Shown piece by piece: positions 12,470-15,855 of a stretch of DNA of 39,363 nt; position 1 is the stretch's first letter; each line of letters starts with the position of its first letter. The stretch comes from Magnetococcales bacterium. Lineage in GTDB: Bacteria > Pseudomonadota > Magnetococcia > Magnetococcales > DC0425bin3. The stretch is taken from the NCBI GenBank assembly GCA_015231175.1, contig JADGBZ010000030.1:1-39363 (forward strand), given 5' to 3'. Position numbers and translations under genes: made by a program. A model generated the notes under the pieces. The model was not told the DNA's origin. It did no database searches and was given only the letters and a program-made list of their open reading frames with translations.

Positions 12470-12561
12470 AGAGTTCAGCGGGGCGGTTTGACCCCACCTT
12501 TGCGCTTGATGTCAAAGAGTTCAGCGGGGCGGTTTGACCCCGCCTTTGCGCTTGATGCCAA
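12470..12561. repeat. 46-bp direct tandem duplication over the end of the ATPase gene
   Basis: Two adjacent 46-base copies (12470-12515 and 12516-12561) that differ at two positions. Each contains GGGGCGGTTTGACCCC, itself an imperfect GGGG/CCCC inverted repeat. The proximal copy encodes the last residues and stop codon of the minus-strand ATPase (12521); the other lies just past the stop. Confidence 0.85.
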
Positions 12562-13981
12562 ACTGCACACGAAATATGTCCGGCATGTTGATGCGGTCCC
12601 CTTCAGTTCGGTAGATGACAGCCAGTTCGATCAGGTCATCCAGGAGCGCTTCTTTGTTGCCCTTGCGGATCGGATCGAAGCCAAACCTGCGTGGCGGCAA
12701 TTTTTTCTTGCCTTCCACCTCAACCAACCGCAGGGTCGCTCCTTTCCAGTTTTTTGTAAATTCAGCGCTGTCGATGGGTACCGTCATATTGCGGCAGGCT
12801 TCGAGAATGGGTTTGATCCAGGGATAATCTTCCTTGATTTCATCCACTCGTGTCCTGGATGCATGCACCACCCCTTGCTGAATGGCCTCATGATGCAAAG
12901 CGAACTTGTAGTCCGGGTATTTTTCCATGGTTTCCGCAGCTCTTTTGAAAGCCAACAAGATACTTCTCGGACTGACGCGACCGATGGCATCCGCCAGATG
13001 AGATGGAATCCAGGTATAGGTATAACCACGACGACTGTTTGATCCCATATGGGGCCCGGCTATGCGGCCAACGATCTCTTTTTGCAGGTGTTCGTCACGA
13101 ATCAGTTCATCGGGAACAAAATAAATTCCCTCCTTGTTTTGCCAGGAATGAGGGTTGATCGCCCGAAATCTCTCCCCAAAGTCCGATGAGTTGCCAATCA
13201 TATGAAACACAAGTCCGTAAAGGTCCGCTTTTCCCCACGAGAGTTCAACTTTTGAGCTTCTAAGTTTTGAACTGTCTCTGAACTCCCATATCTCCGTATC
13301 TTCCTCCATATCTGGCCGAAGGAAAAACTTGAGACGAATCATCTGTCGCGACCGGCACTGGAGGCAAAAGCGCAGAGCGCCTGCCAGGAGCTTGCGTATC
13401 GCAGGCCATTCCGAGGCAAGTCGATCCAGGGAATCGAACAGGACAAGGAGGGGTTTATCCTGCCTGAGCAGTTCCTGATCACATTGGGTCAACAGTTGGC
13501 CCACCCGTTCTGTTTCTTGCGAACACCACTGAATGGCCTCATGCCACCCCTGCGGAAACGGCTGATCCATGCCGCAAACATCCAGGGCATGCCGCAAAAC
13601 CACGGTCTGCCAGATCACAAATGGGTCCATTTTCTTTTTCAGGATGGCAGCCAAGGTTGGTTCGGAGGGAAACCACTTTTCGGTATCGTCCAAACCATAT
13701 CCCACCCGCACATGCACACCCGGTTTCCACGCATGGCCCGCCAACTGTTGCACCAGGGCCTGATGTTCTGGACTGGAAAGAACGGCGGTCCAGAAACTCT
13801 TGCCGGCGCCGCGCATACCGCTGACAATACTGGCGTCCAGACTGAGCGCTTTGCCATGGTTCTTGGGTAGATAAACCTTGCTCAGGGCGGGAGGAGTCAA
13901 ACTCTCCTGGGCGGGGACATCTGGCAACGCAGAGAGAACTTTGCGTAATTGTTTCGCCTCAGGCGGCGTGTAGTCAGCCAT
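12521..13981 (-). CDS. P-loop ATPase of the HEPN/KGGVGR operon
   Basis: 486 residues. Walker A is GMRGAGKS (residues 55-62); Walker B is PLLVLFDSLDR (about 177-187). A following IRLKFFLRPDM, then DSSKLRSSKVELSW, matches the 'F.R.D ... L.W' pattern seen in STAND/KAP-like ATPases that accompany defence genes. The C-terminal 200 residues carry no motif I recognise; the extreme end is basic (KRKGGVKPPR) and lies in a duplicated 46-bp segment. It is the last gene of a three-gene operon, 12 bases after the ParA-like gene with a GGAG site. No membrane segment. ATP-dependent switching is likely; partner and trigger are unknown. Confidence 0.7.
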   Translation of the reverse strand: MADYTPPEAKQLRKVLSALPDVPAQESLTPPALSKVYLPKNHGKALSLDASIVSGMRGAGKSFWTAVLSSPEHQALVQQLAGHAWKPGVHVRVGYGLDDTEKWFPSEPTLAAILKKKMDPFVIWQTVVLRHALDVCGMDQPFPQGWHEAIQWCSQETERVGQLLTQCDQELLRQDKPLLVLFDSLDRLASEWPAIRKLLAGALRFCLQCRSRQMIRLKFFLRPDMEEDTEIWEFRDSSKLRSSKVELSWGKADLYGLVFHMIGNSSDFGERFRAINPHSWQNKEGIYFVPDELIRDEHLQKEIVGRIAGPHMGSNSRRGYTYTWIPSHLADAIGRVSPRSILLAFKRAAETMEKYPDYKFALHHEAIQQGVVHASRTRVDEIKEDYPWIKPILEACRNMTVPIDSAEFTKNWKGATLRLVEVEGKKKLPPRRFGFDPIRKGNKEALLDDLIELAVIYRTEGDRINMPDIFRVQFGIKRKGGVKPPR

Positions 13982-13993
13982 GCAGATTCTCCA

Positions 13994-15307
13994 TCAATCT
14001 GATTTCTCCTGAAATCCGGGCAACCGACTTGTCGCTTCCGTGATGAACCTGCCAAATGCGCGTTCGACCACTTCCCAGGGTGGTTTCTGTGCAGGGTCGA
14101 GAAAATTTTTCTTTGCCAAAAGGGTTTCGAGATAGATTGGGATGGGAAAATGGGGCGCATGCTCTTCAAATTCTTGAAATTCTTGCATGTTCAACGTGGT
14201 ACCATCCTGGGAAGGCGCATCGTACAGATAATCCGACCAAACCTTGTAGGATTTGCTGATCGCACGTTTATAATCACTCTCGCTCCCCCCCGTCTGGGCC
14301 GCAACCATGTTGAAGCGCCAGCGTAAATCTTTTTTCCGCATACCCCATTCCACGCAGCGTGATCTCTGTAGATGTTGGAATAAATGTCCATAAGCTTCCC
14401 AGGTTTGTTGGTCATCTCTGGCAAAGAGGAAAACTTCGGTCGGAAGCTGGGATAGCGCTGCCGCACCAATATCGTGCAAGCCGGCACGGGCATCCAGGAG
14501 GACGACTTCGGGCGACGCATGACGTATTGCAACAGTTTGCAACAAAGCTACAAGGCGTTCTGCCAGACCAAGCGACTCGCCCTTTCCATCCATGGCGGAC
14601 ACATGGATCCGGCCAAGTTTGGCAACATAGTCCAAGGTCTTGTTGCCATAGGCTGGAATGACCTGAATGCCCCCCGTACACTCCTGATTCAAGGGACTTT
14701 CGCGCAGCATATCGTCCAGAAGCGCAGCGTCCGCCTGATTGGCAAGGGACTCGACCAGCCAATCCACCAGGCCAAACCCCGGCAACTCGTCCAGCAACAG
14801 CGAGGCGATGCCTGGCGCCTCCAGGTCCAGATCCACGACCAGGACACGCCGCCCCTGCCGCGCCAACCCCCATGCCCAGGCCGCCAAGGCGGTGCTTCTC
14901 CCCACGCCCCCCTTGATGCTGAAGGCTGCTGCTGTGGGTAGGGGCAGATTCTCCACCACAGGCTTCACGAGCCACTCTTGGTTGGTCAACAGACGATCAA
15001 TCAAAAATGCCTCTTCGTCCGCAATCTGCAATCGCTGGGGAGAGTCAAGAATATCTGCTTTATCGATCAAATCGGAGTGTTCCAGAAGGATCCGTCCCTG
15101 GCCAGGACTGTAACCGCCAAGACAGGTGTGCAGACGCTTGGCCAAACGCTCCACTTCCTTCCGGTCAAGGAGCTGATCAGGCAGGATAACCGTGATCGCG
15201 CCCGCCATATCCCGAACCAGGCAGACCTCGCGCATCCTGGCATGAAGGGTGGGAATTTTCTTCATAAGACCAAGCACGGCAGGAACAGCCTCATCAAATC
15301 TGACCAT
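13994..15307 (-). CDS. KGGVGR-type ParA/MinD-like ATPase
   Basis: 437 residues from ATG 15307, which has a GAGGGG site 7 bases upstream; an open extension to 15370 is less likely because it would overlap the HEPN tail. SIKGGVGRSTALAA (residues 130-143) is a deviant Walker A with Arg in place of the usual Lys/Thr of KGGVGKT; VLVVDLDLEAPGIASLL follows, and VVLLDARAGLHDIG is the third NTPase motif. The N-terminal 130 residues (GGYSPGQGRILLEHSDL) form a separate module that precedes the ATPase in this type. ParA/MinD proteins are ATP-driven dimer switches. The preceding HEPN frame ends one base before this ATG. Its job in this operon is unknown. Confidence 0.78.
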   Translation of the reverse strand: MVRFDEAVPAVLGLMKKIPTLHARMREVCLVRDMAGAITVILPDQLLDRKEVERLAKRLHTCLGGYSPGQGRILLEHSDLIDKADILDSPQRLQIADEEAFLIDRLLTNQEWLVKPVVENLPLPTAAAFSIKGGVGRSTALAAWAWGLARQGRRVLVVDLDLEAPGIASLLLDELPGFGLVDWLVESLANQADAALLDDMLRESPLNQECTGGIQVIPAYGNKTLDYVAKLGRIHVSAMDGKGESLGLAERLVALLQTVAIRHASPEVVLLDARAGLHDIGAAALSQLPTEVFLFARDDQQTWEAYGHLFQHLQRSRCVEWGMRKKDLRWRFNMVAAQTGGSESDYKRAISKSYKVWSDYLYDAPSQDGTTLNMQEFQEFEEHAPHFPIPIYLETLLAKKNFLDPAQKPPWEVVERAFGRFITEATSRLPGFQEKSD

Positions 15308-15308
15308 A

Positions 15309-15467
15309 TCACGACCCCTCATGCCGTATACCCGGGAGACCAACGCAGCCGAGGATGCGTTTGGCCACATCCCGATGTTGGGTCATGGATTCTGAAAAAC
15401 TCTTATGGTCGCCTGCATAGCGCTGGCTCACAGACCAATCGGCGAAAGGATTATCGCGCTTGCTACG
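15309..15467 (-). pseudogene. C-terminal remainder of the HEPN-like gene after an in-frame TAG
   Basis: The same reading frame continues after the TAG at 15468-15470 for about 52 codons to a TGA at 15309-15311. Its translation includes RDNPFADWSVSQRYAGD and MTQHRDVAKRIL. The W-x-x-x-x-R-Y pattern is what the end of HEPN proteins looks like. The frame closes one base before the ATPase ATG (TGA-T-ATG), as expected for an intact coupled gene. So the TAG appears to be a nonsense change in a formerly intact gene of about 145 codons, or a readthrough/recoded site, or a base error. Confidence 0.75.
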
Positions 15468-15752
15468 CTAGAAGGCCAACAAGGCTTTGTACTTCCTATC
15501 CACCTTCAATAAGGTCTCATGACCCCACAAATCATTGATATGCTTTTTTTCGACCGACCCGGAATTTTTTCTGCACCCTGCCACGGCAAACTTGATAGCG
15601 CACTCTGCTGCAAAACCATAGAGTTGGTCGGCATTGGCCAGACGCCCCTCCTTTTCCAGGAGTTGCGCATCCCTGAAGTGGCGCATGGCCGCCTGATCGT
15701 ACACTTCGAGCATGGTCCGAAACTTTTGCGTCGGCATGGGTCTAACCCGCAT
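15468..15752 (-). CDS. HEPN-like small protein, cut short by an amber codon
   Basis: About 94 residues before the TAG. RHFRDAQLLEKEGRLANADQ followed by LYGFAAECAIKFAVAG is the helical HEPN pattern (nucleotide-handling four-helix fold, often an RNase or a nucleotidyl-binding partner). KKHINDLWGHE may carry the conserved His, but I do not see a clean R-x4-6-H site. The start is uncertain: TTG 15764 lies in the T-tract of the rpsU terminator, and ATG 15752 and ATG 15737 are alternatives; none has a strong ribosome-binding site. First gene of the operon with the two ATPases; see the remainder downstream of the stop. Confidence 0.6.
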   Translation of the reverse strand: MRVRPMPTQKFRTMLEVYDQAAMRHFRDAQLLEKEGRLANADQLYGFAAECAIKFAVAGCRKNSGSVEKKHINDLWGHETLLKVDRKYKALLAF

Positions 15753-15762
15753 CGCATGGACC

Positions 15763-15804
15763 AACGAAAACAGCTCCCCCCCGCAAGGTTGCAGGAGGGA
15801 GCTG
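15763..15804 (-). terminator. Intrinsic terminator of rpsU
   Basis: Read on the minus strand, CAGCTCCC pairs with GGGAGCTG (8 bp) across an inner GCAA/TTGC-containing region, followed by TTTTCGTT. It lies just after rpsU and just before the HEPN-like gene, so that operon needs readthrough or its own promoter, which I cannot locate. Confidence 0.65.
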
Positions 15805-15855
15805 TTCCAGGATTTCTGACAGGGGTTGGCCAGACAGAAGCTGAGAGCGGGTGCG

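What the first reader, a model, noticed from the sequence alone, without database searches (positions are those of the whole stretch)
15309..15764. In-frame TAG splits the HEPN-like gene, yet the frame continues to the next start
The frame reads through TAG at 15468-15470 into 52 further codons (WSVSQRYAGD is a HEPN-type end). It then stops as TGA-T-ATG with the ParA-like gene. The tail is still coding-like and correctly coupled, so the stop is recent or is decoded. Options are a silenced toxin, amber suppression, or a base-call or assembly error. If the HEPN partner is a toxin, its loss while both ATPases stay intact is informative.
Basis: seen in the sequence. Interest (0 to 1): 0.7.

Follow-up and report, generated by a model that had tools for sequence, protein, structure and literature searches.

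The report
Amber-truncated RNase of a defence trio
In this uncultured Magnetococcales bacterium, a single stop codon cuts the predicted RNA-cutting protein of a three-gene anti-phage candidate system before its active-site arginine; the two partner ATPase genes and the leftover tail are intact, so the system was probably disarmed recently, or the stop is an error in the draft genome.

Summary
On the minus strand an ATG at 15737 opens an 89-codon frame that ends at TAG 15470-15468. The same frame runs 52 more codons to TGA-T-ATG, where the ParA-like gene starts. Openness alone means little: 14 of 33 TAG-ended genes sampled from this genome run on as far. Homology is decisive: the tail alone scores 33.4 bits against a profile of intact relatives (best of 2000 shuffles, 7.6).

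The locus is PADLOC candidate system PDC-M28: HEPN protein, KGGVGR ParA-like ATPase, AAA/NACHT-like ATPase. I compared 92 distinct chromosomal loci plus 11 viral-contig and 12 plasmid loci; only the window has an in-frame stop as the sole lesion. The TAG separates the invariant E-x3-K and His, which remain, from the invariant Trp-x4-Arg-Tyr and the last helix, which are lost. The tail has diverged no faster than in intact relatives, so the stop is young or an assembly error.

Decoding is unlikely: RF1 is present, TAG is an ordinary stop here, and no CUA tRNA was found. Best reading: recent loss of the HEPN effector with the ATPases kept. HEPN-only lesions recur in 5 other loci, against none in the third gene alone.

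The parts
15471..15737 (-). Head of the HEPN gene (PDC-M28A homologue), 89 codons: helices 1-3, E45-x3-K49 motif (15603-15605, 15591-15593) and conserved His66 (15540-15542)
15468..15470 (-). In-frame TAG (codon 90); relatives have a sense codon, usually for a hydrophobic residue, in this column
15312..15467 (-). Post-stop tail, 52 codons, homologous to the C-terminal third of intact relatives; holds the near-invariant Trp101 (15435-15437) and invariant Arg106-Tyr107 (15417-15422), and the last helix
15309..15311 (-). TGA, original end of the HEPN frame, followed by T and the ATG of the next gene
   Evidence: relatives show overlapping or near-overlapping stop/start
15315..15320 (-). GAGGGG, Shine-Dalgarno-like stretch 7 bases upstream of the ParA-like gene's ATG; it may let that gene be translated without coupling
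   Evidence: seen in sequence; inference
13994..15307 (-). Intact ParA/MinD-like ATPase with KGGVGRS Walker A (PDC-M28B; NCBIfam AAA_KGGVGR)
12521..13981 (-). Intact AAA/NACHT-like P-loop ATPase (PDC-M28C; near the Sll1717 family)

Best explanation
The locus is a horizontally acquired PDC-M28 defence-candidate operon whose first gene, a HEPN-type RNase effector, was recently inactivated by a nonsense mutation. Shown: the gene order, the homology of head and tail, the stop between the two halves of the conserved residue set, and the intact open frames of both ATPases. Inferred: the intact system works as an abortive-infection device. The AAA/NACHT-like protein and the ParA-like ATPase would sense infection and hold or release the HEPN protein, which would cut RNA through E45/K49, His66 and Arg106. 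Translation ending at codon 90 removes Trp101, Arg106-Tyr107 and helix 4 of the bundle, so no active RNase should form. The ParA-like gene has its own ribosome-binding-like site and may still be made. The ATPases would then be without their effector.
For: PADLOC PDC-M28A/B/C hits of 7.9e-32, 6.1e-122 and 1e-154. HEPN-ATPase-ATPase order in the surveyed loci, including loci inside or beside BREX-2 genes on plasmids of Thiodictyon, Sphaerotilus and Streptomyces and on 11 viral contigs. The tail is homologous and as similar to its nearest relatives (mean 40%) as they are to each other (41%); its share of residues unique to the window does not exceed that of intact genes (tail/head ratio 1.07, others 0.79-2.49). 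Arg106 and Tyr107 are present in 79 of 79 intact relatives, Trp101 and His66 in 78 of 79. Fold: best PDB matches are HEPN domains, among them 2hsb and 1wol. The E-x3-K plus upstream-His plus Arg pattern is that described for AbiV/AF0298-type HEPN domains (PMC3710099). RF1 present; no suppressor tRNA seen; TAG an ordinary stop.
Against: No reads were available, so the stop could be an assembly error or a minority strain variant. The codon signal of the tail is too short to be diagnostic. No member of PDC-M28 was found with experimental proof of defence, so the killing mechanism is inferred. With no second lesion in the gene, an artefact fits nearly as well as a very young mutation.
Confidence: 0.7

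Rival explanations
1. The TAG is not in the organism, or not in most cells: a base-call, assembly or strain-mixing artefact of a draft genome in 175 contigs. The operon would then be intact.
For: The tail shows no sign of relaxed selection, the rest of the operon is intact, and no other locus has an in-frame stop as its only lesion. All this is expected if the gene is really whole.
Against: A single-base substitution error is rare in a short-read consensus at adequate depth (general knowledge; depth here unknown). The gene hit is the smallest of the three, and HEPN-only lesions also occur in other genomes.
Confidence: 0.2
2. The amber codon is decoded, by a suppressor tRNA, a reassigned TAG or programmed readthrough, and gives a full-length HEPN protein, perhaps at a low controlled level.
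For: Frame and tail are preserved. Low-level expression of a toxic RNase would make sense in principle.
Against: RF1 is present above its curated cut-off. 33 of 169 long ORFs end in TAG, with sequence after it no more coding-like than after TGA or TAA. None of the tRNAs found reads UAG, though the list lacks some standard tRNAs. No relative has a stop here.
Confidence: 0.03
3. The split is functional: the 89-residue head is made as a stable regulatory or dominant-negative piece that holds the ATPases, or head and tail are made separately and pair up.
For: The head keeps helices 1-3 and all its conserved residues.
Against: No relative is split at this place. The tail has no good start codon (its first ATG lies after the Arg-Tyr motif; one GTG lies before it without a clear ribosome-binding site). 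Loss of helix 4 should unfold the bundle (inference).
Confidence: 0.05

Closest known systems
PADLOC PDC-M28 (phage defence candidate, genes A, B, C)
   Same: All three genes match their models over nearly full length, in the same order and orientation
   Different: The A gene carries an in-frame TAG; none of the other surveyed loci has a stop as its only lesion
AbiV / AF0298-type HEPN domains (Pfam HEPN_AbiV PF18728; PDB 2hsb, AbiV 9bj6)
   Same: Four-helix HEPN fold; E-x3-K motif; conserved His between helices 2 and 3; conserved Arg before helix 4 without a conserved Rx4-6H His
   Different: Sequence similarity is weak: 7 of 14 aligned members hit PF18728 at E up to 1, best 5.3e-5. The gene stands with two ATPases
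HEPN/MNT type VII toxin-antitoxin modules (HepT/MntA)
   Same: HEPN protein encoded in a small operon with a partner
   Different: No nucleotidyltransferase antitoxin; the partners are two P-loop ATPases
MAE_18760 HEPN family, in operon with ParA/Soj ATPase (PMC3710099)
   Same: HEPN protein next to a ParA-like ATPase
   Different: In Pfam the window protein and its relatives match HEPN_AbiV, not that family
BREX-2 (Pgl) systems
   Same: Intact PDC-M28 trios lie beside or inside BREX-2 gene clusters on three plasmids
   Different: In the window the trio sits between rpsU and msrB; no BREX genes were identified next to it

Membership tests
PDC-M28 candidate defence system | PDC-M28A HEPN gene, intact | tested here: not met
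   Homologous over 129 of 138 positions but interrupted by TAG at codon 90. It is a broken copy of the gene
PDC-M28 candidate defence system | PDC-M28B KGGVGR ATPase directly downstream | tested here: met
   405.8 bits, residues 1-430; KGGVGRS present
PDC-M28 candidate defence system | PDC-M28C ATPase as third gene | tested here: met
   514 bits, residues 8-485 of 486
PDC-M28 candidate defence system | Anti-phage activity | not testable with these tools
   No paper naming PDC-M28 found in the library
HEPN superfamily, AbiV/AF0298-type | HEPN four-helix fold | tested here: met
   Model pLDDT 83.7; leading Foldseek matches 1wol, 2hsb, 1ufb, 4nqf, 3o10 are mostly named HEPN domains, probability 0.93-1.00, though E-values are above 0.05
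HEPN superfamily, AbiV/AF0298-type | E-x3-[KR] motif | tested here: met
   E45 and K49 in 79 of 79 relatives and in the window
HEPN superfamily, AbiV/AF0298-type | Alternative His between helices 2 and 3, with Arg before helix 4 | tested here: met
   H66 78/79, R106 79/79. In the window H66 is translated and R106 lies beyond the TAG
HEPN superfamily, canonical | Rx4-6H | tested here: not met
   The His five residues after R106 in the window is not conserved in relatives
HEPN superfamily | RNase activity | not testable with these tools
   Needs biochemistry
Amber recoding / suppression | RF1 absent or suppressor tRNA present | tested here: not met
   RF1 509.6 bits over a 423.25 cut-off; no CUA tRNA among the tRNAs found, list incomplete

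The most novel reading that the evidence does not exclude
Effector-first silencing is a regular state of PDC-M28: the HEPN RNase is repeatedly switched off (nonsense, frameshift, truncation, loss) while the two ATPases are kept, either because the armed system is costly or because the ATPases have a use of their own. Single-gene lesions outside the window hit HEPN in 5 loci (L080 in the same genus, L170, L186, L140, L159) and the third gene in none (binomial by gene length p = 0.012 for the three clear lesions, 0.0006 with the two losses).
Probability: 0.25. Interest if true: 0.5.

Novelty: new member of a known kind. Interest (0 to 1): 0.33.

Why it matters
If the stop is real, the locus is a snapshot of a defence operon just after losing its killing subunit, and congener G002 has a second, independent HEPN-only lesion. 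That makes a general question testable: are RNase effectors of multi-gene immune operons lost first because they are toxic, and do their ATPase sensors keep a function without them? The comparison also gives a residue-level picture of the HEPN subunit of an uncharacterised candidate system (E-x3-K, His, Trp-x4-Arg-Tyr), ready for point-mutation tests.

Tried and rejected
The codon-usage test on the 52-codon tail was not diagnostic. A single-sequence AlphaFold model of the ParA-like ATPase was useless (pLDDT 37.6). A protein-only GTDB scan with P0001 found nothing; the alignment-based scan worked. A sequence search of the PDB with the HEPN profile found nothing. Nucleotide search of plasmids gave only short ATPase matches; protein search of phage records gave none. 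Searching the orders of two other carriers for more loci added little. Synteny at rpsU in congeners was uninformative because their contigs end there. A canonical Rx4H active site was rejected because its His is not conserved.

Full report
OBSERVATION. The minus-strand frame is as described: ATG 15737, TAG 15470-15468, 52 further codons, TGA 15311-15309, T, ATG 15307. The window is one contig of a 3.81-Mb, 175-contig draft genome. It belongs to the Magnetococcales: contigs of the same-order handles G008, G046, G025 and G017 are recognisable by length among named Magnetococcales MAGs.

IS IT MORE THAN CHANCE? The open run itself is not. In about 280 kb of this genome, 14 of 33 long ORFs that end in TAG stay open for at least 52 codons, and tail codon usage is inconclusive. 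Homology settles it: the tail alone gives 33.4 bits against a profile of 13 intact relatives that excludes the window, against 7.6 for the best of 2000 shuffles.

WHAT IT IS. PADLOC assigns the three genes to PDC-M28A, B and C. NCBIfam calls the second gene a KGGVGR-motif AAA ATPase and places the third just under the cut-off of the Sll1717 P-loop family. All 15 Magnetococcales loci examined have the same order; two of them have damaged HEPN genes. Of 80 further GTDB loci, 78 have a HEPN match upstream of the ATPase. All 11 viral-contig loci and 12 fetched plasmid loci carry the trio. Two further Streptomyces plasmids carry the third gene without detectable HEPN or KGGVGR genes. On plasmids of Thiodictyon, Sphaerotilus and Streptomyces sp. 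NBC_01334 the trio stands beside or inside BREX-2 genes, and HEPN RNases are described as auxiliary effectors in BREX loci (PMC12839542). The nearest relatives of the window's ParA-like protein (43-49% identity) are in Methylococcaceae, Sulfuricella, Sulfuriferula, Bordetella, Accumulibacter and Halochromatium, closer than other Magnetococcales (33-42%). This points to horizontal acquisition.

THE HEPN SUBUNIT. AlphaFold with 13 relatives gives a confident helical bundle (pLDDT 83.7). Its best matches among solved structures are HEPN domains, by Foldseek probability rather than E-value. Pfam HEPN_AbiV is the only recurrent, though weak, family match. Over 79 intact relatives, R19, G41, E45, C46, K49, R106 and Y107 are invariant, and H66 and W101 are in 78. 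E45-x3-K49, H66 between helices 2 and 3, and R106 before helix 4 reproduce the alternative active site described for AbiV and AF0298 (PMC3710099). The TAG at codon 90 lies between H66 and W101/R106, in a column where relatives have a sense codon, usually for a hydrophobic residue.

HOW OLD IS THE STOP? Compared with its ten nearest relatives, the window's tail is 40% identical on average; those relatives' tails are 41% identical to each other (head 42% against 48%). Residues unique to the window are no more frequent in the tail, relative to the head, than in intact genes. No second lesion is present. The stop is therefore very young, or an error in the draft assembly; I cannot separate these without reads.

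IS IT DECODED? RF1 is present. TAG ends 33 of 169 long ORFs in the sample, and the sequence after it does not look more coding than after TGA or TAA. ARAGORN on the tRNA regions found no CUA anticodon, but several expected tRNAs (Ile-GAU, Ser-GCU among them) are missing from the list, so absence is weak evidence alone. No relative has a stop in the gene as its only lesion. Decoding is unlikely.

EFFECTOR-FIRST DECAY? Besides the window, HEPN alone is damaged or missing while both ATPases are whole in L080 (congener G002, frameshift), L170 (Nitrospirae MAG, frameshift), L186 (5' part missing, next to what reads like a transposase remnant), L140 and L159 (no HEPN found). The third gene alone is broken in none. 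The KGGVGR gene lacks its N-terminal part in L128. Several loci decay as a whole (L093, L137, L138, L190, L195, L174). By gene length this favours HEPN (p = 0.012 for three lesions, 0.0006 with the two losses). Caveats: the loci were gathered through the KGGVGR gene, so its own breaks are under-sampled; the comparison was made after seeing the data; many loci are MAGs.

MECHANISM. Inferred: infection sensed by the AAA/NACHT-like protein, signal through the ParA-like ATPase, RNA cleavage by the HEPN subunit, abortive infection. In one relative (L093) the third protein carries TPR repeats and in four Magnetococcales loci a calcineurin-like phosphoesterase plus a NACHT domain, which fits a sensor role. 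In the window the system should be without its effector.

VERDICT. A real and well-described observation; a broken copy of a known candidate defence system, modest interest, with a testable hint of effector-first loss.

Noticed in passing
L087:10567-15972, L088:10129-14136, L089:7344-12584, L094:1484-6832: In four Magnetococcales loci the third gene (PDC-M28C) is one 1336-1802-residue frame that continues into a calcineurin-like phosphoesterase and a NACHT domain, an architecture not seen in the window.
   Followed up: partly
L084:5297-8083: In G034 the ParA-like ATPase and the third-gene ATPase are fused in one 929-residue frame, which suggests that the two proteins work together.
   Followed up: no
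L080:5603-5991: In congener G002 the HEPN gene of a different PDC-M28 copy is frameshifted near a run of A while both ATPases are whole; phase variation or an assembly error is possible.
   Followed up: partly
L247, L248, L250: PDC-M28 trios beside or inside BREX-2 (pglX, pglW) clusters on plasmids of Thiodictyon, Sphaerotilus and Streptomyces.
   Followed up: partly
L254, L255: Two Streptomyces plasmids carry the third gene without detectable HEPN or KGGVGR genes.
   Followed up: no
15770-15806: Inverted repeat (ACAGCTCCC...GGGAGCTGT) with a short T run after it, between rpsU and the HEPN gene; reads like the rpsU terminator, so the trio may depend on readthrough from rpsU or on a promoter of its own.
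   Followed up: no
Magnetococcales genomes: PDC-M28 is strikingly frequent in this order (18 of 48 genomes with a HEPN-model match) compared with 4 in about 350 other genomes of the phylum.
   Followed up: partly
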